This document shows, piece by piece, positions 22,818-44,360 of a stretch of 50,565 nt of DNA. The notes under the pieces were generated by a model. The model was not told where the DNA came from. It saw nothing but the letters and a program-made list of their open reading frames with translations, and did not search any database. The stretch is from Acidimicrobiia bacterium. GTDB lineage: Bacteria; Actinomycetota; Acidimicrobiia; Spongiisociales; ZC4RG35. How positions within the stretch are numbered: position 1 is the stretch's first letter; each line of letters starts with the position of its first letter. A program made the translations under genes and the position numbers. The stretch covers positions 1-50,565 of the forward strand of contig JAICRU010000013.1 in the NCBI GenBank assembly GCA_025937235.1. The letters run 5' to 3'.

Positions 22818-23516
22818 TCATCGGAACAGGTCCTCGTCAGGCGACCTAACCAGGTCGCGGCCACGTCCTTCACCTCGGGGCCCCTCGTAGCCTCGGACCA
22901 AGGCCGCCGGGATCCCGGCAGCCTTGCCCATCACCAGGTCGGCAGCGGAGGCGATCTCGTCGGCGACGGCAACCTCGGTGACGTGCAGCTCTTGCCCGGT
23001 CCAGTCCGTGGTGCCCTTCAGGTCGACCACCGCTTCCAGGCCAGATACGCCGATCGCGATGTCGGTGAGGCCCCGGCGCCAGGGTCTGCCGAACGTATCG
23101 GAGATGATGACCGGCAGGTCGACCCCGATCTGGCGGTGAAGCTTGGCCCGGATTCGGTGGGCCGACCGGTCCGGGTCCTCCGGAAGGAGGATCAAGGTCC
23201 CCGGCTCGGCGTTGGAGCGGTCGACCCCCGCATTTGCACAGATGAACCCATGTTTGGTCTCGGCGATCAACAGGTTCCCGCGCCGCCTCACGATCGAGAC
23301 CGCTTCCGACTCGACCAGGGCCCGCTTGAACACCTCTTCGTCGCCCGTCATCTCCACCACCCGCCCCTCGGCCTTGGACACGATCTTGTGGGTCACGACG
23401 AGCACCTCACCGTCCCGCGGCGACAACGGCTCCAGTGCGCCGGCCAAGACGTCCACGACATCGTCTCCGGGTCGGACGGCTCCGATGCCGAGCAGGGGCA
23501 GCACTTCGAGGGTCAC
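22818..23516 (-). CDS. cofE: Coenzyme F420-0:L-glutamate ligase
   Basis: This 232-residue GTP-dependent enzyme adds gamma-linked glutamate to F420-0. It has 'VVTHKIVSKAEGRVVE' near residue 40, 'FICANAGVDRSN', and 'VIISDTFGRPWRRGLTDIAIG', the metal/GTP-binding blocks. It corresponds to the N-terminal domain of mycobacterial FbiB; the C-terminal nitroreductase-like domain of FbiB (needed there for longer glutamate tails and dehydro-F420 reduction) is absent, so this is the short archaeal-type form. The GTG start overlaps the cofD stop as GTGA. The last 25 residues are charged. Confidence 0.92.
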   Translation of the reverse strand: MTLEVLPLLGIGAVRPGDDVVDVLAGALEPLSPRDGEVLVVTHKIVSKAEGRVVEMTGDEEVFKRALVESEAVSIVRRRGNLLIAETKHGFICANAGVDRSNAEPGTLILLPEDPDRSAHRIRAKLHRQIGVDLPVIISDTFGRPWRRGLTDIAIGVSGLEAVVDLKGTTDWTGQELHVTEVAVADEIASAADLVMGKAAGIPAALVRGYEGPRGEGRGRDLVRSPDEDLFR

Positions 23517-24427
23517 AGGGCCAGTATCGCCCGGGCCAGGGCGGACGCCGGCTCCGCGTCGACGATCCTCGTGTCGAGGGCGATGACTCTCACGCCATCG
23601 ATTTCGCCCACATCGGCCCGGTCAGTCGTGTCCACCACCAGGGTTTCGATCATCCCTCGGTAGGCAGCGATCACGCTTTCGGTGCCGGCTCCCAGCCCGA
23701 GATCCGACAGAACCACGTCTGCCGGGCCTTTCAGGGCGCGCCCGCCGATCAGGGGGCTGACCGCCACCACCCGTGGGTGGCGACGAACCGCCTCCGCGAC
23801 GTCTCGGATGGCGAATATCGGCCAGACCGACAGAGGCGGGTTGGAAGGGCCGATCACCACGAGGTCGGCCTCGTCGATCGACTCCACGACGCCCGGGGCC
23901 GGATTGGCCGTCGCCGCCCCGTCGAAGTCGACGCCACTCACGTGGTCCTGGTGTCCACGGTCGACGAAATACTCCCTGAAGGTGAGCTGACGGCCGCCCT
24001 CGATGTTCACCACCGTTCGGATCGTGTCGTTCGAGGCGGGGAGGACCTTCACGTCGAGCCCGAAGGACATTCGAATCGCCTCCGTCACCTCTGAGAGGGG
24101 GTCACCGGCGCCAAGCCGGCTGGTCCGGTATATCTTGAGCGCCAGGTCGAGGTCACCCAGTCGAAACGTGTTGTCGACACCGAATCGGGACAGCTCGGTG
24201 TTGGCAACGAAGCTGTCGTCGGCACGCCCCCATCCCTGTGGGCCCTCCAACCCGGCCAGTGTGTAGATCACGGTGTCCAGATCCGGTGACACCTGGAGGC
24301 CATGGATCGGAGCGTCGTCACCAACATTGACGATCACCGTCAAATCGACCTCCCGGAGGGCGGAAAAGCCTCGAGCCAGCCTCGCTCCGCCCACGCCGCC
24401 GGAGATCTCGACGATCCGCGTGATCAC
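23513..24427 (-). CDS. cofD: 2-phospho-L-lactate / phosphoenolpyruvyl transferase of F420 synthesis (CofD/FbiA)
   Basis: This 304-residue enzyme transfers the phospholactate (or phosphoenolpyruvate-derived) moiety to the deazaflavin Fo, making F420-0. The N terminus 'VEISGGVGGARLARGF' is the family's nucleotide-binding signature. 'IVNVGDDAPIHGLQVSPDLDTVIYTLAGL' and 'GPSNPPLSVWPIFAI' are further conserved blocks. GTG 24427 is chosen since the family begins just before the GGVGG motif; the long upstream extension of the open frame runs antisense to the divergent glycosyltransferase gene. First gene of cofDE. The Fo synthase and the guanylyltransferase (cofC/fbiD) are not in the window. Confidence 0.93.
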   Translation of the reverse strand: MITRIVEISGGVGGARLARGFSALREVDLTVIVNVGDDAPIHGLQVSPDLDTVIYTLAGLEGPQGWGRADDSFVANTELSRFGVDNTFRLGDLDLALKIYRTSRLGAGDPLSEVTEAIRMSFGLDVKVLPASNDTIRTVVNIEGGRQLTFREYFVDRGHQDHVSGVDFDGAATANPAPGVVESIDEADLVVIGPSNPPLSVWPIFAIRDVAEAVRRHPRVVAVSPLIGGRALKGPADVVLSDLGLGAGTESVIAAYRGMIETLVVDTTDRADVGEIDGVRVIALDTRIVDAEPASALARAILAL

Positions 24428-24463: not shown

Positions 24464-27226
24464 ATGTCCTCCCGCATGACTAGTGCCTCGGCTCCGCATC
24501 TCGCGGACGAAACGACACCCCTGGTGCCACCCGGCGCGCCGCGCGTCAAGGTGATCGTCACCCTGGTGGAGGGCGCCGACCTCCAGGCCGCTCTGGCCAC
24601 GGTGGAACGTCAAGTGTATGAAGCGATCCACGAAGTCGTGGTCATCGGGGTGACGAACGGCGAAGTCGTCGGTGATATCGGCCGCTCCTCCACCCTCGAG
24701 GAGGCCATTGCCGCCACCGAACACGACGTGGACTATCTCTGGATCCTCCACTCGGATGCCCGGCCCCGCCCCGACGCCCTCTCCGCTCTGGTGGCGGAGC
24801 TCGATCGGAACGACGCCTCGCTTGGCGGTTCGAAGCTCCTGCTGGCAGGGACCCGTGACGAGCTGGAGTCGATCGGTAGCGCCACCGATGTCTTCGGTGA
24901 CCCTCACACCGGGCTCGACGACGGGGAGATCGATCTACAGCAGTACGACGTGGTTCGTGAGGTCGCCTTCGTCTCCTCCGTGTCGATGCTGGTTCGACGG
25001 GACCTGGCTCAAGGGCTGCGAGGGCTGGACGAGTTGCTCGAGCCGGTGGCAGCGGGGCTCGACTTCTCGCAGCGGGTGCGCCTCGCCGGAGGAAGAGTGA
25101 TCACCGTCCCTTCTTCGGAGGTCTATCACCAGGCGCGGTGCGAGGAACGGGGCCGTGGCTGGCGTGAAGAAGCGGGCCGGCTACGCGCCATGCTGAAGGC
25201 CTACCGCCCGATCACCCTGGCCTGGGTCGTCCCCTTCGAGATCCTCGTCTCAGTCGTCGACTCGTTGGCCAACCTGCTCCTCCTGCGATGGAAGGTGGGT
25301 GTGGGCCACGCGATGTCCTGGCTCTGGAACATCGCCCATCTGCCATCCACGATCGCCGAGCGCAGTCGATTCAAGCCGGTTCGGGCTGTCGGCGATGAGG
25401 AGCTGTTCAGGTTCCAGGCCCGAGGTTCGGTTCGGCTGCGAGAGGTGGGATCGGAGCTTACCGACCGAGTCCTCTCCATCTTCGATGACGACCAGGCCCT
25501 GGCCCGGGGGACGAGGAGGATCTGGTCGAGCCCGGGAATCTGGGGGGCGATCCTGGCGGCCGTGGTGGTCATCGTCGCCTCCTGGTCGATTTTCTTCGCG
25601 GGGGTTCCCAACACCGGGTTCAGCTTCCCCTTCGAGCCGCCAACCGTGGCGATCGATCGGTTCATGGCGGGATGGAACGAATCCGGGCTCGGCTCGGCCG
25701 ACGCGGTGCACCCGGCCACCGGGCTCACCGGACTCATCTCATTCCTCTGGTTCGGGGCCGAAGGGGCGGCCCGGACCCTGTTGACCGTCATCTTCGGCGC
25801 ACTGGCCGTGCTGGGGATGGGCCGTCTCGCCGGCAGGCTCGGCTTTCGCGGCCCCGGCCGCTACCTGTCGGGGCTGGTCATGCTGGCGGGCCCGGGGACA
25901 GCCTTGCTGGTGGGTGTGGGGTCGTGGCTGGCCCTCGGCGCGGCCGCCTTCCTCCCCTGGGCGGTGCGCTCGGTGACCCTTCACCCCGATGATCGAGGCA
26001 AGAGCTGGTTGTCACATATCGGGTCGGCGGTGATCTGGACGATGCTGCTCACCGCGGTCTCACCACTCCTCGGGGCCGTCCCGTTCGTCGTCGCGGTGGC
26101 CTGGCGCCTCATCGGTGGGAGCAGGGCATCTCTCCGTCTTGCCCTGGCGACACTTGCGGCCGGGGTCGTCGCCATCGGCTTTGCCTATGACGACCAAGGA
26201 TGGCTGCTCGATGTCGAACGTCGGGTGGGCCTGGTGGTCCCGGACTGGTGGCCGGTCCTGATCGCTGTCGCCGCGATCGCTCTGATGCTGGTCGAGGGCC
26301 GGACGAGGCGGCTCGGCTTGCTGGGGTCGGTGTTGGGTCTCGGCGGGCTGCTGCTCGTCCGTCTGCCATTTGGCGGGCCCGGGATCGAGGAGGGGGCTTT
26401 GGTGCTCGCGTCGTTCGGAGCGGCGGTCCTGGTGGCCGCCGCCCTCGATCAGCTCAGCGTCGAGCCGCGACGGCTGCTGGCGTCGTTGGGAGCCGTGGCG
26501 ATGTTGCTCGTCTCGGCGGCCGGCCTTCTCGATGGGCGATTGGGGCTTCCGTCGGGGGACGTCAACGATCGGCTCGCCTTCGCATCCACGCTCGCCAACG
26601 GCAGAGCTCCGGGGAGAGTGCTCCTCATCTCGGCGAATCGAAGCCTCATCCCGGGCGAGGCCCGTCCCGGCCCGGGCGTGTGGTATCGCACCGTCGACGG
26701 TGGAGGGACCACCATCGACGAGGTGTGGCTCCCCGAGATCGCGACCGGCGACATCCAGCTCGGGGGTGCCATGGACCGCATCGCCAGTGGCGCCGAGCTA
26801 CGTCCCGGGGCGCTCCTGTCTGAGTTCTCCGTCGAGTGGGTTGTGGTCGACGGAGAAGAGACCGCCTTCGACACCATTCTGCAATCACAGCTCGACCTGG
26901 TGCCAACTCCTCTGGCCACCGGTGCCCGGGTCTACGAGAACCCGGAATCCGCGCCCTTGGCTTCGTCGGAGGCGGGCCAGACCTGGGCTCGGCAAGGAAC
27001 CGGGTTCGCCGGTGAGCCGTCCGATGGACGTGCGGTCTTGAGGCTGAACTACTCCCATGGATGGGGGCCGGAGCCGGAGCTCGACGACTGGTTCACGACG
27101 GTCTCGGCAGCCGGCGGCGCAGCCGACTTTGCTGCAACCGGTTATCTCTCCTGGGCGCCCTACGCCGCGGCCGCTCTCCTGCTGGGGGCGATTGGCTCGA
27201 TCGGTTGGGGCAGGGTGCGACGATGA
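24464..27226 (+). CDS. GT2 glycosyltransferase fused to a large multi-pass membrane region
   Basis: This 920-residue protein has an N-terminal GT-A domain (about 25-260) with 'HEVVVIGVTNGEV', 'YLWILHSDARPRPDALSAL' (acidic metal-binding site) and 'VSMLVRRDLAQGLRGLDE'. About twelve membrane helices follow from residue 365 or so, and then an extracytoplasmic C-terminal domain (about 710-895) and a final helix. Comparable actinobacterial proteins sit beside the F420 and DUF5719 genes. It may polymerise or decorate an envelope glycan; donor and product are unknown. Start ATG 24464 (or 24476). Divergent from cofD by 36 bp, and overlapping the DUF5719 gene downstream as ATGA. Confidence 0.8.
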   Translation: MSSRMTSASAPHLADETTPLVPPGAPRVKVIVTLVEGADLQAALATVERQVYEAIHEVVVIGVTNGEVVGDIGRSSTLEEAIAATEHDVDYLWILHSDARPRPDALSALVAELDRNDASLGGSKLLLAGTRDELESIGSATDVFGDPHTGLDDGEIDLQQYDVVREVAFVSSVSMLVRRDLAQGLRGLDELLEPVAAGLDFSQRVRLAGGRVITVPSSEVYHQARCEERGRGWREEAGRLRAMLKAYRPITLAWVVPFEILVSVVDSLANLLLLRWKVGVGHAMSWLWNIAHLPSTIAERSRFKPVRAVGDEELFRFQARGSVRLREVGSELTDRVLSIFDDDQALARGTRRIWSSPGIWGAILAAVVVIVASWSIFFAGVPNTGFSFPFEPPTVAIDRFMAGWNESGLGSADAVHPATGLTGLISFLWFGAEGAARTLLTVIFGALAVLGMGRLAGRLGFRGPGRYLSGLVMLAGPGTALLVGVGSWLALGAAAFLPWAVRSVTLHPDDRGKSWLSHIGSAVIWTMLLTAVSPLLGAVPFVVAVAWRLIGGSRASLRLALATLAAGVVAIGFAYDDQGWLLDVERRVGLVVPDWWPVLIAVAAIALMLVEGRTRRLGLLGSVLGLGGLLLVRLPFGGPGIEEGALVLASFGAAVLVAAALDQLSVEPRRLLASLGAVAMLLVSAAGLLDGRLGLPSGDVNDRLAFASTLANGRAPGRVLLISANRSLIPGEARPGPGVWYRTVDGGGTTIDEVWLPEIATGDIQLGGAMDRIASGAELRPGALLSEFSVEWVVVDGEETAFDTILQSQLDLVPTPLATGARVYENPESAPLASSEAGQTWARQGTGFAGEPSDGRAVLRLNYSHGWGPEPELDDWFTTVSAAGGAADFAATGYLSWAPYAAAALLLGAIGSIGWGRVRR

Positions 27227-28515
27227 GCAAGCTGTTCCTTTCGGTCCTGGTCGCCGCGATGGCTGTGGTCGTCTTGTTGGTCCCGAGCCCCGAGGCACCG
27301 GGGCCCGGCCCCGCTGCCGCCACCAACCCGCCCTCGGTTGCGGTATGTCCCGTCGACGAGGGGAGCGGGCGGACCACCCGCATCGGGGTTGCTTCCGAAG
27401 TTGGGGGAGAGGGCCGTTTCACCGCTTTCGCGGCCGGGGTCTCGGCCGGCGCAACCTCCTTCTCCACGGAGGCCTCGGGGTCTGCTGCGGTGTCCGTCTC
27501 CGAGATCGCACCCATCGGAGTCGGCGCGGGCCTGACCGAGATGCCGGATGGGGACGTGGCGGCGGCATCGGTATTGGTCGGCACCCAGTCGATCGCGGTC
27601 GAGCCGTGCACACCCGTGCCCGTCCCCCGCACGCTCATCGCCGGCGGGTCCACCCTGAGCGGACAGCAGCATCAGGTCCAGTTGATGAATCCCTACGCGG
27701 GGGAAGCGATGGTAGATCTCATCGTCCAATCGGACTCGGGTCTCGAGGCTGCCCCCCAGCTAGGTGGGATAATCGTCCCGTCGCGCTCTTCGGAGATCAT
27801 CGATCTCGACGAGCTGCTGCCGGGCCGTCAGGCCCTGGCGATTGCAATCGAGGTCGCCAGCGGCAGCGTGATGACCTCCGCCAGATTGGACGTGGGAGGG
27901 GATGGGGCGCTGTGGCACTCGGTTGATCCCGCCCTCGATTGGTTCGTCCCGGTCCCGGCTGCAGGGCTGGCAGGTGATCTTGTCATCGCAACCGGTTCGA
28001 CGTCCGAGGTGGAGTACCAGGTCGATGTCTACGGGCCTCAGGGGTTGGTGGAGGCTCAGCAGGAAGGTGTGTTGCCCGCCCGAGGCACCGTCTCCCTGCC
28101 CCTGGTCGGGATGGAGCTCGAAGCTGCCTCGGCCGTCCGGGTCATCTCCACCCAGCCGGTGGCTGTGTTTCAGCGACTCATCTCGGAGACCGGTGTCGCC
28201 CTGACCGCGGGGAGCCCCGCAACTTCCTCCAGCTGGCTTCTTCCCGCCGCCGGTCTGGCTCCGGGGGGAACCGGGAGCCTCCTCATCTTCAACGCGGGGC
28301 TCGATGAGTCCGTCGTCGTGGTCTCGGCCCGCCGTGATCAACCGGCAACAGAGGAGGTGGTGGTTCCTGCGGAGACGACCGTCGAATTGCCTGCGATCAC
28401 GGGCGGGGCCAACGCTTACACGGTGCAGGGCCAAGGTCCACTGGTGGCGGCATGGGTGACAACGGGTGCTGCCGCCACGGCATACAGCATCGGCGTCCCA
28501 CTGCCCGATGAGTGA
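27223..28515 (+). CDS. DUF5719-family secreted or anchored protein
   Basis: This 430-residue protein has an N-terminal signal/anchor helix (about 4-22) followed by a Pro/Ala-rich linker and two Ig-like or beta-rich repeats. The first contains 'HQVQLMNPYAGEAMVDLIV' and the second 'GSLLIFNAGLDESVVVVSA', each a short beta-sandwich pattern with 'NP/NAG' turns. I recognise this layout as DUF5719, known as a partner gene of the large GT2 protein in actinobacteria. Function is not established; an extracytoplasmic partner of the membrane glycosyltransferase is a reasonable inference from the ATGA overlap with it. Confidence 0.72.
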   Translation: MSKLFLSVLVAAMAVVVLLVPSPEAPGPGPAAATNPPSVAVCPVDEGSGRTTRIGVASEVGGEGRFTAFAAGVSAGATSFSTEASGSAAVSVSEIAPIGVGAGLTEMPDGDVAAASVLVGTQSIAVEPCTPVPVPRTLIAGGSTLSGQQHQVQLMNPYAGEAMVDLIVQSDSGLEAAPQLGGIIVPSRSSEIIDLDELLPGRQALAIAIEVASGSVMTSARLDVGGDGALWHSVDPALDWFVPVPAAGLAGDLVIATGSTSEVEYQVDVYGPQGLVEAQQEGVLPARGTVSLPLVGMELEAASAVRVISTQPVAVFQRLISETGVALTAGSPATSSSWLLPAAGLAPGGTGSLLIFNAGLDESVVVVSARRDQPATEEVVVPAETTVELPAITGGANAYTVQGQGPLVAAWVTTGAAATAYSIGVPLPDE

Positions 28516-28867
28516 GATCTGGATGCGACTGCTTGTGGTCGCCGGGGCGCTCGTCCTCGTCGGGCTGCTCGTCTTCCTCATCAGACCTCGCAGAAGGCGC
28601 GGTCATCCCTTCGATGGAGCGGGTCTCCAGCCGGGTGTCTATCTCTTCACGTCGACGACATGTGCAGATTGCATGACGGCCAAGGCTCGGCTGGCGGAGG
28701 GGCTCGGACCGTCCGGGTTCGTCGAGATCGAGTGGGAGAGAGACCCAGACCTGTTCACCCGGGTCGGGATCGGACTTGTCCCATGCACAGTGGTCGTAGC
28801 GTCGGACGGGGCATCTACCAGGTACCCCGGGCTGCCGGACGGTCTCCTCGATCCGTTGAGTCCTTGA
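28508..28867 (+). CDS. Membrane-anchored thioredoxin-like protein (CADC)
   Basis: This 119-residue protein has one N-terminal membrane helix (about 6-26), a basic 'RPRRRRG' stop-transfer patch, and a thioredoxin-fold domain with the redox motif C52-A-D-C55 in 'FTSTTCADCMTAKARL', followed by 'GLVPCTVVV', where a cis-Pro-like segment is expected. By the positive-inside rule the basic patch suggests the domain is cytoplasmic, which would be unusual for a TlpA-like reductase; topology is uncertain. The gene overlaps the DUF5719 stop by 8 nt, so it belongs to the same operon. It might service the cysteine-rich small proteins encoded downstream (inference). Confidence 0.75.
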   Translation: MSEIWMRLLVVAGALVLVGLLVFLIRPRRRRGHPFDGAGLQPGVYLFTSTTCADCMTAKARLAEGLGPSGFVEIEWERDPDLFTRVGIGLVPCTVVVASDGASTRYPGLPDGLLDPLSP

Positions 28868-28892
28868 ATGGAATCGGCCCAACTTCTACCGT
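28864..28892 (+). promoter_or_regulatory. Promoter TTGAAT-N17-TACCGT
   Basis: A -35-like TTGAAT (28864-28869) and a -10 TACCGT (28887-28892) are 17 nt apart. The -10 box ends 7 nt before ATG 28900, so the message is probably leaderless. It overlaps the end of the thioredoxin-like gene. Confidence 0.6.
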
Positions 28893-28899
28893 TTCCGGC

Positions 28900-29121
28900 A
28901 TGATTCTCAGCTGTGCCCGATGCGGGTCGCCTGCTGCGGCCGTCATGTCGTTCTCTTATCAGGATCGGTCGGTGTGGATGGACGACCTCGTGAACGGCGC
29001 CGAGCGCACCGGGTACACGATGTGCGCGGACCATGCCGACCGCATGATCCCACCGCTCGGGTGGACTCTGACCGACCGTCGCACGGTCACCAGGTTGTTC
29101 GCTCCTCTGTCAGTGGCCTAG
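28900..29121 (+). CDS. DUF3499-family small zinc-binding-like protein
   Basis: This 73-residue protein has a compact Cys/His arrangement: C5-A-R-C8 at the N terminus and C42-A-D-H45 in the middle, likely a single zinc site. The pattern 'RSVWMDDLVNGAERTGYTMC' is typical of DUF3499, an actinobacterial family encoded next to manB and the F420 genes. ATG 28900 is fixed by the TTGAAT/TACCGT promoter directly upstream. Role unknown; in this window it starts its own transcript within the glycan island. Confidence 0.75.
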   Translation: MILSCARCGSPAAAVMSFSYQDRSVWMDDLVNGAERTGYTMCADHADRMIPPLGWTLTDRRTVTRLFAPLSVA

Positions 29122-29128
29122 TGATCTA

Positions 29129-29407
29129 GTGGCCCTCGACCGCGATCTGCTCGACGCAGTCAAAGAACTCGACGAGCACGATCTTCGACGTCTGCTGATA
29201 CTGACCCGAGCCCAGTTGCACCGGTCGGGTTCTCTGATCGGGGAAGACCATCCCGAGGTCCATCTTCGCCAGCAATCGGTGCGTTGCGGCAAGGTGGGCT
29301 GCACGCGTTGCCCGCACGGTCCGTACTGGTACGCCTACTGGACGGAGAACGGCCGGCGGCGGAGCCGATATGTGGGGCGTCTGCTCGATGAGGACGCGTT
29401 GTTGTAG
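29129..29407 (+). CDS. Small cysteine-containing protein (DUF6788-like, tentative)
   Basis: This 92-residue protein has a charged helical N-terminal half and a C-terminal 'VRCGKVGCTRCPHGPYWY' motif (C53, C58, C61), followed by 'GRRRSRYVGR'. Small proteins with RCGK-x-GC...HGPYWY are, as I recall, grouped as DUF6788; no function is established and the assignment is tentative. The GTG start lies 7 nt after the DUF3499 stop, so the two are probably co-transcribed. The Arg-rich end suggests nucleic acid or polyphosphate binding (speculative). Confidence 0.6.
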   Translation: MALDRDLLDAVKELDEHDLRRLLILTRAQLHRSGSLIGEDHPEVHLRQQSVRCGKVGCTRCPHGPYWYAYWTENGRRRSRYVGRLLDEDALL

Positions 29408-29420
29408 GGCCGTGACAGTC

Positions 29421-29426
29421 GTACGA
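29421..29426 (+). promoter_or_regulatory. Possible -10 box TACGAT
   Basis: TACGAT stands 26 nt before ATG 29453. It would give a short leader for the zinc-ribbon/GT-C gene pair. Weak evidence. Confidence 0.3.
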
Positions 29427-29452
29427 TTATCCCGCCGCAGCGCTTAGACGAG

Positions 29453-29629
29453 ATGAACTGCCCAACGTGCTCACAACCTGACGTGATCGAGATCGAGCAC
29501 GTCCTTCCCGACGGGACCCAGGTGTATTTCTTCGCATGTCACAACTGTGAGGAGAAGTGGTGGAACCGCGACGGGGAGGACATCGACATCTCTCAGGTCC
29601 TGGAGATCGTCCGGCAACATCGCGCGTGA
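29453..29629 (+). CDS. 58-residue zinc-ribbon microprotein
   Basis: This small acidic protein has paired C3-P-T-C6 and C29-H-N-C32 motifs 23 residues apart, a classic zinc-ribbon spacing. Between them is a beta-hairpin-like 'VIEIEHVLPDGTQVYFF', then 'EEKWWNRDGED' and a C-terminal helix. The stop overlaps the GTG start of the large GT-C-like membrane gene as GTGA, which is strong evidence that it is a real, translationally coupled gene. I do not know the family. It may bind nucleic acid or a protein partner; a link with the glycosyltransferase rests only on the overlap. Confidence 0.72.
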   Translation: MNCPTCSQPDVIEIEHVLPDGTQVYFFACHNCEEKWWNRDGEDIDISQVLEIVRQHRA

Positions 29630-31959
29630 CCAACCCGGGGCAGAGATTCAGGGAGAACCCCTGGCCGGTGGTCCTGACCCTCGCCGGCATATCCCTGGTG
29701 ATCTTCATCGTGATGAACCCGTGGTGGATCGTCTCGTCGACGACACCGACGGGAGGCGACATGGGGGCCCATGTCTTCGGTCCCGCCTATCTGCGCGACC
29801 AGCTACTCCCTGAGGGGCGGATCCTCGGTTGGTCGAACGACTGGTTCGCCGGATTCCCGGCTTTCTACTTCTACTTCCCCCTGCCTTCCCTGATCATCGT
29901 CCTGCTCGACCTGGTCATGCCCTACGGGGTGGCTTTCAAGCTGGTCACAGTCATGGGCTTGCTCGCCACCCCGCCGGCGGCTTACTACCTGGCTCGCTCT
30001 ATGAGGCTCGGCAAGCACGTCTCGTTGATCGCTGCCGGCGCGGGTGTCGTCTTCGCCTTCTTCGAGAGCTACTCGATCTATGGAGGCAACGTGGCCTCCA
30101 CGCTCGCCGGTGAGTTCTCGTACTCCTGGTCGTTCGCCCTATCGCTTCTCTATCTGGGGCTGTTGATACGCACCGTTCGGGATGACCGCAGATACCTGAA
30201 ATGGGCCGCGCTGGCGCTGGCGGCCACCGCTCTGTGTCACGTCCTGACCACGATCGTCGTCATCTTCGCCTCCCTTTTCGTCCTGCCTTGGCGCAAGGGC
30301 TTCTGGCGAACTCTGGCCATATGGGCCTGGGGGTTTGCCATCGCCGCCTTCTGGGCTCTGCCCCTTCTAGCCCGCATCAGATTCAGCTCCGACATGTCCT
30401 GGACTCCGCTGTCGCGATGGGAGGAGATCTTCCCCGTCGAGATCTGGCTCCTGCTCCCCCTGGCCATCCCCGGGGTGATCTGGATCAGCCGCCGCACCTC
30501 TCGGGCGGCACCGCTGCTGGCCGCGACGATCCTGCCCGTGCTCTATTTCCCGCTGCCTCATGTGATGCCGGAGCTGTTTCCCACGGTGTTCGGGGGAGAG
30601 CGTTGGAAGCTCTGGAACGGGCGACTCCTTCCCTACTGGTACTTCGGGGTGGCCTTCTTCGCCGCAGTCGGCGCCGGAGCGGCCATCATCTGGCTGTCGA
30701 GAAGGCTGCCCTCCCGTATCTCCTCGTATTGGCCGCGGGCGCTCATCGCCCTGATCACGGTGGTCGCCTGTGCTCTCGTCATCGACTCGACCGAGTTCCC
30801 GCGTTGGGTCTGGGTCCCGGTGGCAGCTGCCGGGGTCCTATTGCTTGCCGCCACGTTCGCCTGGCCATCCAACCTGCCTACCCGCTCGTTTCTCACCGGC
30901 ACGATGGTGTCGATCGTCGTGCTGGGGGCCCTGTCCGGGGTGACCTTCGTCGACGGCTGGGCGAAATGGAACTACGAGGGATACGAGTCGAAGGAGGCAT
31001 GGCCCGAGTACGAGGCGCTGATGGCCGAGCTCGACACCCTTCCGGAGGGCCGGGTCCATTGGGAGGCGAACAGCGAGCTGAATCAGTACGGGACGCCGAT
31101 GTCCCCGATGCTCATCCCATACTGGACGAACGGCTCTCACCCGTCGATGGAGGGTCTTTTCTTCGAGTCGTCCCTGACCACTCCGTTTCACTTCATCAAT
31201 TCCTCCGAGATGTCCGAGAAGCCTTCCAATCCGATCCCGGGTCTGACCTATCACACCGGTGAGATGGACCGCGGGCTCAAACATCTGGAGCTGTTCGGTG
31301 TGGATTACTACGTGTCGTTCACCCCGGAGGCGACGGAGCGCGCAGATGCCATACCGGAGATGACCAAGGTCGCCACCACGGAGCCGTTCACGATCTACCA
31401 GCTCCCCCACAGCGACCTGGTCGAGGTCGCCTCATACCAGCCGTCGGTCTACGAGGTACCCGAGCACGGTCTGATGGACTCACTCACCGGGTCGGACACC
31501 GTGACCGGGTCCGAGGGCGAAGAGCTGCCCAGCTTCTTCGACATGGCACTCGAGTGGTACGAGGACGTGGACAACCTGGACCGATTGGTGGTCGCCGATG
31601 GGCCGGCGGACTGGCCACGGATCGAATCCATCGACCAGCGGCCGACGACGGCCATCGAAGCGCCGTCGGACGCAGTGAGTGACATAACGGTCGAAAACCA
31701 CCGGATCTCGTTCACCACCAGCGCCGTCGGGATGCCCCATCTGATCAAGGTCTCCTACTTCCCGAACTGGAGGGCGGAGGGAGCGGAGGGCCCGTGGCGG
31801 GCCACTCCCTCGCTGATGATGGTCGTCCCCACCAGCGAGAACGTCGTTCTGGAGTTCCAGGACACTTGGGCGGAGACCGGGGGGAAGGTGGCGACCGGGC
31901 TCGCCCTCGGCGCACTAATCGGTATCGGCGTCTGGAGCGTGCGCCGCCGGGACGCTTGA
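29626..31959 (+). CDS. GT-C-like membrane protein (PTPS-related / YfhO-like)
   Basis: This 777-residue membrane protein has about twelve helices in the first 450 residues and a large C-terminal extracytoplasmic domain, with a last helix at the very end. The first outside loop carries 'TPTGGDMGAHVFGPAYLRD', an acidic GT-C-like motif, followed by 'WFAGFPAFYFYFPLPSLIIV', typical of the '6-pyruvoyl-tetrahydropterin synthase related' membrane domain, which despite its name is not a pterin enzyme. Such proteins are likely polyprenyl-phosphate-sugar-dependent glycosyltransferases. GTG 29626 is fixed by the overlap with the zinc-ribbon stop. Its end overlaps the convergent GT2 gene by 45 bp; that GT2 could make its lipid-linked donor. 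Confidence 0.78.
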   Translation: MTNPGQRFRENPWPVVLTLAGISLVIFIVMNPWWIVSSTTPTGGDMGAHVFGPAYLRDQLLPEGRILGWSNDWFAGFPAFYFYFPLPSLIIVLLDLVMPYGVAFKLVTVMGLLATPPAAYYLARSMRLGKHVSLIAAGAGVVFAFFESYSIYGGNVASTLAGEFSYSWSFALSLLYLGLLIRTVRDDRRYLKWAALALAATALCHVLTTIVVIFASLFVLPWRKGFWRTLAIWAWGFAIAAFWALPLLARIRFSSDMSWTPLSRWEEIFPVEIWLLLPLAIPGVIWISRRTSRAAPLLAATILPVLYFPLPHVMPELFPTVFGGERWKLWNGRLLPYWYFGVAFFAAVGAGAAIIWLSRRLPSRISSYWPRALIALITVVACALVIDSTEFPRWVWVPVAAAGVLLLAATFAWPSNLPTRSFLTGTMVSIVVLGALSGVTFVDGWAKWNYEGYESKEAWPEYEALMAELDTLPEGRVHWEANSELNQYGTPMSPMLIPYWTNGSHPSMEGLFFESSLTTPFHFINSSEMSEKPSNPIPGLTYHTGEMDRGLKHLELFGVDYYVSFTPEATERADAIPEMTKVATTEPFTIYQLPHSDLVEVASYQPSVYEVPEHGLMDSLTGSDTVTGSEGEELPSFFDMALEWYEDVDNLDRLVVADGPADWPRIESIDQRPTTAIEAPSDAVSDITVENHRISFTTSAVGMPHLIKVSYFPNWRAEGAEGPWRATPSLMMVVPTSENVVLEFQDTWAETGGKVATGLALGALIGIGVWSVRRRDA

Positions 31960-32652
31960 TCCGGATCCGGCCAGGGTGCGTCGGATCCTGAACATCCCCT
32001 TGATGGTCCGGGGCACCCTCTTCAGCAGGGAGGACCGGGCGACACGCATCTCCTCCACCACCACAGGCACCTCCCGGATCCGGTAGCCGGCGCGCTCCGC
32101 CCTGATCACCAGCTCGGTGTCGAACAGGTCCTGTCGGCTCTCCACCTGAGGGGCGAGCCGGGCCACCAGCTCGCGGCGAAACGCCTTCATGCCGTGAGTG
32201 TCGGAGACATCGGAGTCGAGCACGGCCCGCAGGAGCAGGTTGAACACGAGTGTCGCAACCCGCCGGATCAATGGGCGCCGGTCCTCCGATCCAGGGTCTC
32301 GCTTCGAGGCGATCACCAGGTCTACTCCTTCGAGCGAGCGCACCTGTCCCAGGAAGCCGGCTGAGAAGTAATCGATGTCGAAGTTGACCACCCACTCACC
32401 GTCTGCCTCGAGGAAACCATGCCTCATCGCAGCGCCGTAGTCGGGCTGATCCAGCGAGATGACAGTGACTGGGTGGCCCCGGGAAGCCTTTCTCGCCGCC
32501 TCCGCGGTCCCATCGGATGACCCGTTCTCAACGACCAGGACGTGATAGGTCTCCTCGAGTCCTTCCAGTTGGGCCAGCATCGCGGCCAAGCCTCGGGGGA
32601 TGAACTCCGCCTCGTTGTAGACAGGAACCACGATCGAGAAGGTGGGGCTCAT
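31915..32652 (-). CDS. GT2 dolichyl/polyprenyl-phosphate mannosyltransferase-like protein
   Basis: This 245-residue GT-A enzyme begins 'FSIVVPVYNEAEFIPRGL'. It has 'VVENGSSDGT', the acidic 'NFDIDYFS' at the metal site, and 'DTHGMKAFRRELV', like DPM1-type polyprenol-phosphate mannosyltransferases. No membrane helix is visible, as in soluble DPM1. ATG 32652 is preferred over the upstream ATG at 32691 because a TACACT box lies 10 nt before it and the family starts just before 'SIVVPVYNE'. Divergent from manB, whose product leads to GDP-mannose, so mannosyl-phosphoprenol is a likely product (inference). Confidence 0.82.
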   Translation of the reverse strand: MSPTFSIVVPVYNEAEFIPRGLAAMLAQLEGLEETYHVLVVENGSSDGTAEAARKASRGHPVTVISLDQPDYGAAMRHGFLEADGEWVVNFDIDYFSAGFLGQVRSLEGVDLVIASKRDPGSEDRRPLIRRVATLVFNLLLRAVLDSDVSDTHGMKAFRRELVARLAPQVESRQDLFDTELVIRAERAGYRIREVPVVVEEMRVARSSLLKRVPRTIKGMFRIRRTLAGSGSSVPAAHAPDADTD

Positions 32653-32662
32653 CGAGGGATGA

Positions 32663-32668
32663 AGTGTA
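32663..32668 (-). promoter_or_regulatory. -10 box TACACT for the GT2 gene
   Basis: TACACT on the minus strand ends 10 nt before ATG 32652. It mirrors the manB box on the other strand. Confidence 0.4.
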
Positions 32669-32695
32669 GGAATGGGCAGGTGATAGGCCACCCCG

Positions 32696-32701
32696 TAGAC
32701 T
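32696..32701 (+). promoter_or_regulatory. -10 box TAGACT for the manB operon
   Basis: TAGACT ends 10 nt before ATG 32712, the same gap as for the divergent GT2 gene, with no Shine-Dalgarno sequence. Confidence 0.4.
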
Positions 32702-32711
32702 CCGGCGCCCG

Positions 32712-34055
32712 ATGAGCCCCGAGTCCGTTTTCAAGGCCTATGACATTCGCGGCCGCACCGACAACGGGGAGCTGAACCCGGAGCTGTTCCGCCTCGTCGG
32801 CGGTGCCTTCGTGGACCTGGTCGGCGACGGTGAGATCGCAGTGGGGAGGGACTGCCGGGAGTCCTCCGAAGGGCTGTTCCAGGCCCTGGTAGAGGGGATC
32901 AAGGTGGCCGGGGCCGATGTGGTCGACCTGGGGCAGGTGCCCACCGACCTGGTCTATTTCTACTCGGGCCGATACGGAGTCCCGGGGGCGGTCATCACCG
33001 CGTCCCACAACCCGCCCGAGTACAACGGGCTCAAGCTGTGCCGTTCCGGAGCCGCGCCGGTCGGGGTCGAGTCGGGCCTGGACGAGATCAAGCGCGCAGT
33101 CGTCGAAGACCGCACTCGCGTGACCGAGACACCTGGATCGGTGCGTCGGGTGGATGCCATCGACGAGTACGTCGACCATCTCCTGGCGATCGTCGACCCG
33201 GGTGCGATCGGCCCGTTGCGGGTAGCCGTCGATGGCGGGAACGGGATGGCCGGGGTGACCGTCGAGAGGGTGTTCGCTCGTCTCCAGGCCACACTGGACG
33301 GTCTCTATCTGGATCCCGACGGCACCTTCCCCAACCACCCGGCCGACCCGATCCAGCCCGAGAATCTCCGTGACCTCATCGCGATGGTGGCCGAAGGCGG
33401 TCACGATCTCGGGGTCGCGTTCGACGGCGACGCCGATCGGGCCTTTTTCATCGACGACGAGGCGGAGGCGGTGAGCGGCAGCACGGTCACGGCATTGATC
33501 GCAAGATGGATGCTGGCGCGCAAGCCCGGAGCGTCGATAATCCACAACCTGATCACGTCGCGGGCGGTGCCGGAGGTGGTCGAGGCGGCAGGTGGCACCC
33601 CGATCAGGACCCGGGTGGGGCACAGCTTCATCAAGCAGGTGATGGCCGAATCGGGGGCCGTGTTCGGTGGCGAGCACAGCGGCCACTACTACTTCGCCGA
33701 CAACTATCGGGCCGACTCGGGGATGCTGGCGATGCTCATCCTCCTCCGGGTGCTATCGGAAGCGAATCGCCCCCTCTCCGACCTTCGTCAGGAGGTGGAG
33801 ACATATCACTCGTCGGGCGAGATCAACTTCGTGGTCGACGACCCCGAGGCAGCCATGGGCAGGGTCGAGGCCAGATTCCCAGACGCGGCCACCGACCTGC
33901 TCGACGGCCTGTCAATGGACCTCGGAGATGTCTGGTTCAATCTGCGCCCCTCCAATACTGAGCCTTTGCTCCGGCTCAACGTTGAGTCGGGTGACGAGCA
34001 AATCATGAGGGACACGGTGGCGCTGATCGAGTCGACGCTGGAGGAGGTCGGATGA
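32712..34055 (+). CDS. manB: Phosphomannomutase / phosphoglucomutase
   Basis: This 447-residue alpha-D-phosphohexomutase interconverts mannose-6-phosphate and mannose-1-phosphate. It has the phosphoserine loop 'TASHNPPEYNGLKLC', the metal-binding 'FDGDADRAFFID', the sugar-specificity loop 'GEHSGHYYF', and the phosphate-binding 'RPSNTEPLLRLN', in the usual order. GEHSG is the phosphomannomutase/PGM dual-specificity type. The gene leads an operon with the Trm112-like gene and the isomerase, joined by ATGA overlaps. It supplies mannose-1-phosphate for GDP-mannose, matching the nearby mannosyltransferase-like genes. Confidence 0.93.
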   Translation: MSPESVFKAYDIRGRTDNGELNPELFRLVGGAFVDLVGDGEIAVGRDCRESSEGLFQALVEGIKVAGADVVDLGQVPTDLVYFYSGRYGVPGAVITASHNPPEYNGLKLCRSGAAPVGVESGLDEIKRAVVEDRTRVTETPGSVRRVDAIDEYVDHLLAIVDPGAIGPLRVAVDGGNGMAGVTVERVFARLQATLDGLYLDPDGTFPNHPADPIQPENLRDLIAMVAEGGHDLGVAFDGDADRAFFIDDEAEAVSGSTVTALIARWMLARKPGASIIHNLITSRAVPEVVEAAGGTPIRTRVGHSFIKQVMAESGAVFGGEHSGHYYFADNYRADSGMLAMLILLRVLSEANRPLSDLRQEVETYHSSGEINFVVDDPEAAMGRVEARFPDAATDLLDGLSMDLGDVWFNLRPSNTEPLLRLNVESGDEQIMRDTVALIESTLEEVG

Positions 34056-34231
34056 GCCTGATCGACCCACAATTGGCCGCGATCCTGGTATGCCCGGTGG
34101 ACAAGGCAGACCTGACCGAAGACGAAGCCGCCTTCCGGCTGATCTGCACGGAATGCGGACGCCGCTATCCGGTGCGAGACGGGATCCCGGTGATGCTGGT
34201 CGACGAGGCAGAGGGCGGGCCGGATGAGTGA
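34052..34231 (+). CDS. Trm112/UPF0434-like small zinc protein
   Basis: This 59-residue protein starts 'LIDPQLAAILVCPVDK' and has C14, then C32-T-E-C35 and 'RRYPVRDGIPVML', the Trm112-like fold pattern. Family members bind one zinc ion and in eukaryotes activate methyltransferases; bacterial single-domain copies have no fixed role. One of the four usual cysteines is replaced (V16-D17 after C14), so metal binding may be altered. It overlaps both manB (ATGA) and the isomerase (8 nt), and therefore is translated with mannose-activation enzymes. Confidence 0.82.
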   Translation: MSLIDPQLAAILVCPVDKADLTEDEAAFRLICTECGRRYPVRDGIPVMLVDEAEGGPDE

Positions 34232-35225
34232 CATGCTGGAGCAGATCCGCACTCTGGGAGACCAGCTCCGGTGGGCACGCGATCTCGAATCCCCCGAATT
34301 GACACCAAACCCGGAAGTCCTCGTGGGGGGGATGGGTGGATCCGGGATCGCCGGCGACTACGGCGCCGCCTTGGCCGGGCCCACCCAGGGGAGAGTCTCC
34401 GTGCAGAAGGGATATGGGCCATTGCCCGGCTGGGTGAGGAGATCGCGGCCGACGGTCATTGCCGCCTCTTATTCGGGCAACACGGAAGAGACCCTCGACC
34501 TGGTCGGGGCGGCCGCCGAAGAGGACCTTCCCATCGTCACCATCACCACCGGTGGACGGCTGGCAGAGCTCACTTCCGAGAACGGGTGGCCCGGGATCAC
34601 GGTGCCCTCGGGAATGCAGCCCCGAGCTGCGGTCGGGTATATGGCAGGGGCGGTGGCCCGGTCGCTGACCGCACTGGGCATCCTTCCCGACCAGGGCGCC
34701 CCGCTCGCCGAGGCGGCGGATCTGGCGGATTCGGCCGCCACCGAGGGCTCCGAGACCTGGGACATGGCCCATCGTTTGGCCGTGGATCTGGTCGGCAAGG
34801 TCGCCATCGTCTACGGCGGTGGGGCGATTTCTTCGACGGCTGCACAGCGGTGGAAAACCCAGATCAACGAGAACGCCAAGATGCCGGCCTGGTGGTCGGC
34901 TTTCCCCGAGTTGGACCACAACGAGATCGTCGGCTGGGAGACGCTGCCTGAGACGACCAGAGATCTGCTCGGGGTCATCGCACTCGTCGATGAAGGCGAT
35001 CATCCGAGAGTCGCCAGTCGCCTCAGCCACACGTCTGCCCTGACCGAGTCGGCGGTTCCGTGGTTGGCCGAGGTCAGGGCGAAGGGCGATTCGGAGCTGG
35101 CCCGATTGATCTCACTGACCGTCTGCGGGGATCTGGTCTCCTACCTGCTGGCCATCGAAGCCGGGGTCGACCCGGTTCCTGTCGAGACCATCGAGAAACT
35201 GAAAGAGCTATTGGCAAAGGACTGA
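34224..35225 (+). CDS. Bifunctional phosphoglucose/phosphomannose isomerase (SIS domain)
   Basis: This 333-residue protein has two SIS domains. The first carries '[19 protein letters not shown]' and '[13 protein letters not shown]'. The second carries '[32 protein letters not shown]' and '[11 protein letters not shown]', which match the archaeal/actinobacterial bifunctional PGI/PMI family. It feeds fructose-6-phosphate to mannose-6-phosphate for manB, with which it forms an operon. ahcY follows after a one-nucleotide gap, so the isomerase and AhcY are almost certainly co-transcribed. Confidence 0.87.
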
Positions 35226-35226
35226 G

Positions 35227-36477
35227 ATGAACTACGACATAGCCAATCCTGCATTGGCCGAGACGGGCGCACGCAGAATCGAGTGGGCCGGGCGCCGCAT
35301 GCAGGTGCTGGCAACGGTGCGGGAGCGGTTCGCCAAAGAGAGGCCCCTGGAGGGTCTGGTGGTCGCTGCCTGTCTCCATGTGACGGCCGAGACGGGAAAC
35401 CTGATGCTGGCGTTGCGTGACGGGGGCGCCGAGCCTCTGCTCTGTGCCTCGAACCCACTCTCCACGCAGGATGACGTCGCTGCGGCGCTGGTCGCCGAGG
35501 GGATTCCGGTCTTTGCCATCCGGGGCGAGGATGCCGACACCTACTACAAGCACATCCACGCCGTCCTCGATCATGCACCGGCGATCACCATGGACGATGG
35601 AGCGGACCTGGCCACCCTCCTTCACACCGATCGGCGGGATATCGAGGTGATCGGCTCGACCGAAGAGACGACCACCGGGGTCATCCGACTGAAGGCGATG
35701 GCAGCCGACGGGACGCTCCGTGTGCCGGTGGTGGCCGTCAACGATTCAGCCACCAAGCATCTCTTCGACAACCACTACGGGACCGGGCAGTCGGCCATCG
35801 ACGGCATCATCCGCGCCACCAACATCCTCCTGGCCGGTCAGCACGTGGTCGTGGTCGGCTACGGCGACTGCGGCAGAGGTGTCGCCAACCGTGCCGATGG
35901 CCACGGAGCCAACGTCATCGTCGTCGAGATCGACCCGGTGCGGGCTCTCGAGGCCCGTATGGACGGTTTCCACGTGATGACCGGTATCGATGCTGCCCGG
36001 GTCGGTGACGTCTTCGTCACCGTCACCGGTAACAAGCATGTGCTGCGGATGGAGCACTTCGATGTCATGAAGGACGGGGCCATCCTCTCCAACGCCGGCC
36101 ACTTCGACATCGAGCTCGACCTGGCAGCCCTTCGTGCAGCCTCGGTGGCCCGACGCCCGATCAGAGACAACCTGGAGGAATTCGAGATGGAGGACGGGCG
36201 GAGGCTCCTGGTCATAGCCGAGGGCCGTCTGGTCAACCTGGGCGCGGCCGAGGGTCATCCCGCCGACGTGATGGACATGTCCTTCTCCAACCAGGCCCTG
36301 GCCGCCGAGTACCTCGCCCTCAACGCCGGACAACTGGCGCCAGAGATCTACACCCTGCCGACGGAGATCGACGAGGAAGTGGCCAAGATCAAGCTGGAGC
36401 ACATGGGTGGCGGTCTCGACACTCTCACCGAGGACCAGGTGGCCTATCTGGCCGGCTGGCAGGAAGGGACCGCCTGA
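35227..36477 (+). CDS. ahcY: Adenosylhomocysteinase
   Basis: This 416-residue NAD-dependent enzyme hydrolyses S-adenosylhomocysteine to adenosine and homocysteine, removing the product inhibitor of methyltransferases. Blocks: '[13 protein letters not shown]', '[13 protein letters not shown]', '[13 protein letters not shown]', '[14 protein letters not shown]', the NAD motif '[18 protein letters not shown]', and '[15 protein letters not shown]'. It lacks the roughly 40-residue insert of mycobacterial and many other bacterial forms, so it is the short archaeal/thermophile-like type. Last gene of the manB operon. The same order (manB ... sahH) is kept in mycobacteria, though more loosely. Confidence 0.94.
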
Positions 36478-44006: not shown

Positions 44007-44354
44007 GGGGGTGAAACGGTTTCGACGTCGAGTGTTGAGGCGTCGGAAGCGAGCCGGGGTCTCCGGGGCCCCGTCAACAAACCGGAACAACCAATAAGTG
44101 CCGAAGACAACTTCGCACTGGCTGCCTAAATAAGCGGCCCGTCCGCCCGACCGAGTCCCGCACGGTCGGGGTCGGGCGTCGCACAGCGGGATGCCCCCCA
44201 CGGGGCTCCGGGACCGTGGGGTCAAGCCAACTCCGGATAGGCGCAGGGAAACTCGTCGTCAGAGTTCCTGTGTCCGAACGCTCGCTGACGACTGCGCTCG
44301 GAGATGCCGGCGCTGACGGCTCGACGGACCGGGGTTCGACTCCCCGCACCTCCA
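44007..44354 (+). ncRNA. ssrA: Transfer-messenger RNA
   Basis: This roughly 348-nt RNA has the hallmark 5' end GGGGGTGAAACGGTTTCGAC. It pairs with the 3' end CACCTCC to make the acceptor stem, preceded by a T-arm with GGGGTTCGACTCCCC. The internal tag reading frame at 44073-44129 reads VNKPEQPISAEDNFALAA then TAA, ending in the ALAA degradation signal; the exact resume codon (GTC assumed) is uncertain. CCA is not encoded (ACTA follows), so it must be added after transcription. The smpB gene is directly upstream. It rescues stalled ribosomes together with SmpB. Confidence 0.95.
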
Positions 44355-44360
44355 CTACGA

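What the first reader, a model, noticed from the sequence alone, without database searches (positions are those of the whole stretch)
24464..35225. F420-linked mannose/envelope glycan island with several small metal-binding proteins
In order: a GT2/membrane fusion, DUF5719, a membrane thioredoxin-like CADC protein, DUF3499, a DUF6788-like protein, a 58-residue zinc ribbon, a GT-C-like protein, a GT2 synthase, manB, Trm112-like and PGI/PMI. Overlaps join most of them in groups. Established: mycobacteria keep fbiAB, manB and sahH close together. Inference: the mannosyl-phosphoprenol GT2 could supply the GT-C protein, and DUF5719 could be an outer partner of the large GT2. Three to five small Cys-rich proteins inside a glycan operon is unusual and suggests a redox- or zinc-sensing layer.
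Basis: partly seen in the sequence, partly recalled or inferred. Interest (0 to 1): 0.62.

Follow-up and report, generated by a model that had tools for sequence, protein, structure and literature searches.

The report
Acidimicrobial variant of actinobacterial glycan locus
This is a real, strongly conserved block of cell-envelope sugar-transfer genes in a little-studied group of actinobacteria; its core was already described in 2009, but here it carries extra genes, and its large sugar-transferase seems to have lost its catalytic residue while still being kept intact.

Summary
The window is from an Acidimicrobiia MAG. GT2L–DUF5719–CADC–DUF3499–DUF6788–zinc ribbon–GT-C is intact on one strand in 13 of 14 same-family loci and 6 of 13 loci elsewhere in the order. 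GT2L–DUF5719–DUF3499 persists across the phylum. The small genes are under purifying selection. One correction: the small GT2 lies on the minus strand.
The GT2L–DUF5719 pair is not new: De Souza, Iyer and Aravind (2009, PMC2739507) described the secreted actinobacterial ASRAH protein next to a glycosyltransferase, WhiB and a zincin. None of 15 Acidimicrobiia genomes checked has WhiB or the zincin at this site.
The F420 link is neighbourhood only; mannose is unproven. The small zinc proteins look like conserved neighbours, not a sensor layer.

The parts
22818..23516 (-). FbiB-like F420-0:gamma-glutamyl ligase (ligase domain only); conserved divergent neighbour
   Evidence: Pfam F420_ligase E 3e-60; next to CofD in most loci
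23513..24427 (-). CofD/FbiA, 2-phospho-L-lactate transferase; divergent from GT2L with a gap of about 36 bp
   Evidence: Pfam CofD E 1.7e-44; GTG start at 24427 inferred
24464..27226 (+). GT2L: N-terminal GT2 domain fused to an AftD-like GT-C membrane core and an ectodomain
   Evidence: Pfam Glyco_tranf_2_3; profile match to AftD 6wbx/6w98 E 2e-9; HHalign 99.6% with AftD relatives; base acid lost
27223..28515 (+). DUF5719: secreted, ASRAH-type predicted sugar-binding protein with two invariant cysteines (C42, C129)
   Evidence: Pfam DUF5719 E 3e-16; profile match to Anabaena sensory rhodopsin transducer E 0.0015; Cys invariant in 21/21
28508..28867 (+). CADC: one-TM thioredoxin/glutaredoxin-like protein, CxxC and cis-Pro invariant; charge bias puts the fold in the cytosol
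   Evidence: Profile match to thioredoxin 2l6c E 3e-10; C52, C55, P92 invariant in 18/18; N-flank negative or neutral and C-flank positive in most members
28900..29121 (+). DUF3499: small CxxC/CxxH protein
   Evidence: Pfam E 1.5e-8; ligands kept in 54/54 rows; dN/dS 0.03-0.11 in three comparisons
29129..29407 (+). DUF6788-like small C..C..C.H protein
   Evidence: Pfam E 4e-4, below cut-off; ligands kept in 33/33; dN/dS 0.08-0.12
29453..29629 (+). 58-residue zinc ribbon, TFIIS-type
   Evidence: Four Cys and W37 invariant, 33/33; best PDB match TFIIS 1tfi E 8e-4
29626..31959 (+). GTC: GT-C membrane glycosyltransferase related to PTPS_related, invariant GGD.G.H in the first outer loop
   Evidence: PF10131 in 3 of 23 relatives, best E 1e-20; D45, E163, E480, E509, E514 invariant
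31915..32652 (-). GT2s: polyprenyl-phosphate-hexose-synthase-like GT2, DXD intact, no TM segment
   Evidence: Pfam Glycos_transf_2 E 9e-20; D92/D94 invariant; best NCBIfam dolichyl-phosphate hexose transferase E 2e-14, below cut-off
32712..34055 (+). ManB phosphomannomutase/phosphoglucomutase
   Evidence: Pfam PGM_PMM I-IV
34052..34231 (+). Trm112-like, 3 of 4 zinc Cys left
   Evidence: Pfam Trm112p E 2e-11; ligand census
34224..35225 (+). Bifunctional phosphoglucose/phosphomannose isomerase (TobH/PGI-PMI type)
   Evidence: Pfam bact-PGI_C E 1e-43; NCBIfam TIGR02128 above cut-off
35227..36477 (+). SahH adenosylhomocysteinase, end of the second group
   Evidence: Pfam AdoHcyase E 2e-60

Best explanation
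The island is the Acidimicrobiia version of a long-known actinobacterial envelope-glycan locus, carrying two membrane glycosyl-transfer modules plus conserved housekeeping neighbours. Module 1 is GT2L with DUF5719: a GT2 fused to an AftD-like GT-C core, with a secreted ASRAH-type sugar-binding protein that probably works in trans as AftD's built-in carbohydrate-binding domains do. In this order the GT2 part has lost its catalytic base and probably binds or regulates rather than transfers. Module 2 is GT2s with GTC: a cytosolic synthase of a polyprenyl-phosphate sugar, flipped by an unidentified flippase and used outside by the GT-C enzyme. manB and PGI/PMI supply hexose phosphates. DUF3499, DUF6788-like and the zinc ribbon are conserved neighbours whose role is unknown, most likely nucleic-acid or protein binding. 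Shown: gene content, order, selection, motif status, homology. Inferred: the sugar, the acceptor, the flippase, partner binding, loss of activity.
For: Conserved order. DUF5719-GT2L adjacency across the phylum and in the 2009 ASRAH paper. AftD match over the whole GT-C core, plus a weak, same-order match of the GT2L C-terminus to AftD 1197-1311, beyond AftD's carbohydrate-binding insert. GT2 base acid present in 10/10 other Acidimicrobiia but in 0 of 25 distinct genomes of this order (the script counts 26 because L009 and L010 are one contig). The GT2 module is nevertheless the most constrained part of GT2L in all seven comparisons. GTC keeps an invariant outer-loop Asp. A clear GT2s relative neighbours GTC in 6 of 11 loci from outside the class without DUF5719 or manB. 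Acidimicrobiia loci lack WhiB and the zincin there. DUF3499 sits in the man operon of Corynebacterium and in the conserved manA-ahcY region of Rhodococcus.
Against: No biochemical data. The DUF5719 match to ASRT is weak (E 0.0015) and the AlphaFold models were unusable (mean pLDDT 38 and 32). No flippase was identified. GT2L of the window still keeps D98, the invariant E155/D157/Q160/D162 set and D200, so catalysis by another residue is possible. About half of GT2L sequences have an acid near residue 391 in the outer loop, so GT-C activity of GT2L is not excluded. 5 of 11 outside loci show no clear GT2 next to GTC.
Confidence: 0.5

Rival explanations
1. One reading: one F420-linked mannose/envelope operon with a redox- and zinc-sensing layer made of the small Cys proteins and CADC.
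For: Small proteins are real, keep their ligands and lie in the same run of genes. CADC keeps CxxC and is predicted to face the cytosol, where it could meet zinc-thiolate proteins.
Against: A minus-strand gene splits the run. DUF3499 and the zinc ribbon are absent from genomes G023 and G030 (one genus), which keep the glycosyltransferases and CADC. DUF3499 exists without DUF5719 in other families. No F420-dependent enzyme was recognised in the island. DUF5719's two Cys are also invariant where CADC was not found.
Confidence: 0.1
2. GT2L is a fully active enzyme in this order, using a different catalytic residue, and makes or extends the glycan itself with DUF5719.
For: GT2 module strongly constrained. 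Invariant acids E155/D157/D162/D200 retained.
Against: The acid at the usual base position is missing in every order member read, and six members also lack the metal-site Asp98.
Confidence: 0.25
3. The gene order reflects chromosomal inertia only: unrelated housekeeping genes that stayed together, without shared function.
For: sahH, comF and secA are also kept nearby; DUF3499-manB-tobH-ahcY order is likewise kept in Rhodococcus.
Against: GT2L-DUF5719 adjacency persists across the phylum and GT2s-GTC adjacency persists in unrelated neighbourhoods, which inertia does not explain.
Confidence: 0.12

Closest known systems
Actinobacterial ASRAH protein-glycosyltransferase-WhiB-zincin locus (De Souza, Iyer & Aravind 2009, PMC2739507)
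   Same: Secreted ASRAH/DUF5719 protein directly next to a large glycosyltransferase; shared flanks (fbiAB, DUF3499, manB) in the Streptomyces-type loci read here.
   Different: No WhiB and no zincin at the site in the Acidimicrobiia genomes checked; a membrane thioredoxin-like protein and a GT-C protein are there instead; GT2 catalytic base lost in this order.
AftD, mycobacterial arabinofuranosyltransferase D (6w98, 6wbx; Pfam PF11847)
   Same: Homologous GT-C membrane core, by profile and HHalign.
   Different: GT2L has an extra GT2 domain, lacks the roughly 600-residue stretch that holds AftD's carbohydrate-binding domains, is not matched by PF11847 in this genome, and lacks AftD's conserved D/E-T/S-K acid in the first outer loop.
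Three-component extracytoplasmic glycosylation (GtrA/GtrB/Gtr; GT136 systems, PMC11127046)
   Same: A polyprenyl-phosphate-sugar-synthase-like GT2 next to a GT-C enzyme.
   Different: No flippase found beside the pair; sugar and acceptor unknown; GTC belongs to a PTPS_related-like family.
man operon with DUF3499 in Corynebacterium and Rhodococcus (PMC7775120, PMC11854999)
   Same: DUF3499, manB, PGI/PMI (tobH) and sahH kept together.
   Different: Here DUF6788-like, zinc ribbon, GTC and GT2s stand between DUF3499 and manB; no tmk-mtrAB follows sahH.

Membership tests
Actinobacterial ASRAH/DUF5719-glycosyltransferase locus | DUF5719/ASRAH protein, secreted, next to a large glycosyltransferase | tested here: met
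   signal-like N-terminal segment
Actinobacterial ASRAH/DUF5719-glycosyltransferase locus | Similarity to the ASRT beta-sandwich | tested here: inconclusive
   Profile E 0.0015 to 2ii7; AlphaFold model too poor to compare
Actinobacterial ASRAH/DUF5719-glycosyltransferase locus | WhiB and inactive zincin at the locus | tested here: not met
   Neither near the locus in 15 Acidimicrobiia genomes; WhiB directly upstream of GT2L in 8 of 9 other genomes, zincin close in 6 of 9
AftD (GT-C_AftD) | Match to PF11847 | tested here: not met
   No match in the window's genome at E <= 1
AftD (GT-C_AftD) | Homologous GT-C core | tested here: met
   E 2e-9; HHalign 99.6%, E 8e-23
AftD (GT-C_AftD) | Acidic residue in first outer loop (D/E-T/S-K) and carbohydrate-binding insert | tested here: not met
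   No column of the loop is acidic in more than 51% of sequences; alignment jumps from AftD 591 to 1197
Active GT2 (GT-A) transferase, for GT2L | ED/DD base motif | tested here: not met
   AG at residues 197-198; absent in all order members read
Active GT2 (GT-A) transferase, for GT2s | DXD motif | tested here: met
   D92 and D94 invariant
Three-component extracytoplasmic glycosylation | GT-C enzyme with invariant outer-loop acid next to a polyprenyl-phosphate-sugar GT2 | tested here: met
   the GT2's substrate is inferred from family only
Three-component extracytoplasmic glycosylation | Dedicated flippase | not tested
   None among the island genes scanned; genome not searched
Zinc- or redox-sensing regulatory layer | Ligands conserved in the small proteins | tested here: met
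   (not for Trm112)
Zinc- or redox-sensing regulatory layer | Regulates the glycan genes | not testable with these tools
   Patchy co-occurrence argues against an obligate role

The most novel reading that the evidence does not exclude
In one Acidimicrobiia order the phylum-wide GT2-AftD-like fusion has become a conserved pseudo-glycosyltransferase: its GT2 site has lost the catalytic base and its GT-C loop has no invariant acid, yet the protein stays under strong selection with its secreted sugar-binding partner. Sugar transfer would be done by the neighbouring GT2s-GTC pair, and GT2L/DUF5719 would act as a transmembrane glycan-sensing or scaffolding complex.
Probability: 0.3. Interest if true: 0.55.

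Novelty: new variant of a known kind. Interest (0 to 1): 0.37.

Why it matters
The GT2L–DUF5719 pair is kept from Streptomyces-type genomes to Acidimicrobiia, but I found no experimental work on it in the papers searched. Recognising GT2L as a GT2 fused to an AftD-like core, with a secreted sugar-binding partner, gives a concrete, testable hypothesis for an envelope-glycan step shared by much of the phylum. The clade-specific loss of the GT2 base gives a natural experiment on whether that step depends on GT2 activity. The recurring GT2s–GTC pair marks a probable lipid-linked sugar transfer system in uncultured actinobacteria.

Tried and rejected
Structure prediction of DUF5719 and GTC with two-sequence alignments gave mean pLDDT 38 and 32; no fold search was run on such models. 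The single genome-contig scan found one named relative (L009), which is the same contig as L010, so it is not counted twice in the conclusions. Paper search for DUF5719 gave none; the hits for Rv3258c were not followed up. Promoter scan: no sigma-70-type sites; terminator-like sites mostly lie inside genes, so operon limits rest on spacing and strand only. Considered and rejected: spurious small ORFs (dN/dS and conservation exclude it); CADC as the oxidant for DUF5719's Cys pair (predicted cytosolic, and the Cys pair is invariant where CADC was not found). Two GT2s subtypes occupy the site in different members, so the donor sugar could not be read from sequence.
Full report
What is there. The window is from an Acidimicrobiia metagenome-assembled genome; the nearest named record is 'Acidimicrobiia bacterium isolate OF_bin.16', 93% identical in GT2L. 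On the plus strand run GT2L, DUF5719, CADC, DUF3499, DUF6788-like, zinc ribbon and GTC, with overlaps or gaps of at most 45 bp. GT2s follows on the minus strand, overlapping the end of GTC. Then come manB, Trm112, PGI/PMI and sahH on the plus strand. FbiB and CofD lie divergently upstream; CofD's inferred start is about 36 bp from GT2L's.

Is it real. I fetched 60 loci around DUF5719 from relatives and searched them with profiles grown from the window proteins. The seven-gene order on one strand is intact in 13 of 14 same-family loci that reach far enough, and in 6 of 13 loci elsewhere in the order. In the latter GTC is present in 13 of 13, and DUF3499, DUF6788-like and the zinc ribbon in 11 of 13. 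Outside the class, GT2L is adjacent in 19 of 20 loci and DUF3499 is present in 20 of 20. The small genes are under purifying selection and keep their Cys/His ligands, except Trm112.

What was known. DUF5719 loci match those that De Souza, Iyer and Aravind described in 2009: a secreted ASRAH-domain protein of actinobacteria tightly linked to WhiB, a glycosyltransferase and an inactive zincin, fused to the glycosyltransferase in Frankia, and predicted to bind sugar (PMC2739507). That paper does not use the name DUF5719; the identification rests on the shared neighbourhood and on my DUF5719 profile, which finds the Anabaena sensory rhodopsin transducer weakly (E 0.0015). DUF3499 lies in the man operon of C. 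glutamicum, where a transposon mutant in it was among those selected as envelope candidates (PMC7775120), and in the conserved manA-ahcY region of Rhodococcus (PMC11854999). The core of this finding is therefore already known.

What differs here. In eight of nine non-Acidimicrobiia genomes checked, WhiB lies directly upstream of GT2L, and a zincin is close in six. Neither is near the locus in any of the fifteen Acidimicrobiia genomes checked. The CADC protein stands after DUF5719 in most loci of the class. CADC matches thioredoxins (E 3e-10), keeps both cysteines and the cis-proline in all 18 members aligned, and has one membrane segment with positive charge on its C-terminal side in most members, so by the positive-inside rule the fold faces the cytosol.

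GT2L. Its C-terminal half matches the GT-C core of mycobacterial AftD (E 2e-9; HHalign probability 99.6%). The GT2L C-terminus also matches, weakly, the part of AftD near residues 1197-1311, so GT2L looks like an AftD-like core without the stretch between, which holds AftD's carbohydrate-binding domains, and with a GT2 domain in front. AftD's conserved D/E-T/S-K acid in the first outer loop has no counterpart that is acidic in more than 51% of GT2L sequences. In the GT2 domain, the acid pair that in GT2 enzymes carries the general base (my own knowledge of GT2 enzymes: the ED/TED motif) is present in 10 of 10 other Acidimicrobiia and in 10 of 19 sequences outside the class, but in none of 25 distinct sequences of the window's order; the script counts 26 because one genome entered twice. 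Despite this the GT2 domain has the lowest dN/dS of the three parts of GT2L in all seven pairwise comparisons. Loss of activity is an inference; other acids are invariant.

GTC and GT2s. GTC has an invariant GGD.G.H motif in its first outer loop and further invariant acids. Three of 23 relatives match PTPS_related (best E 1e-20). GTC relatives occur in nearly all Acidimicrobiia sampled and in several other families of the phylum. Among eleven GTC loci that I fetched from outside the class, none of which shows DUF5719, GT2L or manB, a clear GT2s relative is the neighbour in six (L094, L095, L099, L100, L104, L105); L096 has only a distant GT2, and four have none. Two GT2 subtypes are used in this position. 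The sugar remains open: no NCBIfam equivalog passes its cut-off, and manB is not part of the pair elsewhere.

Small proteins. The zinc ribbon is closest to TFIIS-type ribbons. DUF3499 occurs without DUF5719 in several families, and DUF3499 and the zinc ribbon are absent from two genomes of one genus of the order that keep the glycosyltransferases. I read them as old neighbours of manB rather than a sensor of the glycan genes. DUF5719 has two invariant cysteines, and 18 of 21 members have exactly two; a disulfide seems more likely than the second lipid attachment suggested in 2009. This is inference.

Verdict. A real, strongly conserved locus whose core is published; the Acidimicrobiia form is a new variant with a probably inactive GT2 module and an added GT2–GT-C pair. 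Interest is moderate.

Noticed in passing
window 44007-44357 (+): tmRNA gene, Rfam score 165.
   Followed up: no
L094, L095, L099, L100, L104, L105: GTC-GT2 pairs outside the class, without DUF5719 or manB; a candidate lipid-linked sugar transfer system of its own.
   Followed up: partly
L012, L015, L028 versus the window's GT2s: Two distantly related GT2 subtypes occupy the same site and strand in close relatives, suggesting gene displacement.
   Followed up: partly
L040:9009-10946 (-), and probably the matching place in other class loci: An FtsH protease gene on the opposite strand separates CADC from DUF3499 outside the window's order.
   Followed up: no
window 34052-34231 and class relatives: Trm112-like protein loses its zinc cysteines: 3 of 4 left in the window, at most 1 of 4 in other Acidimicrobiia orders sampled.
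   Followed up: partly
window 1-22796: Further envelope genes: LPG_synthase_TM, GT4-type and GT2 transferases, Bac_transf, a PBP with PASTA domain, LytR-CpsA-Psr, UDP-glucose dehydrogenase.
   Followed up: no
families f33, f39 and others: Some phylum members carry 7 to 14 DUF5719 matches, an apparent family expansion.
   Followed up: no
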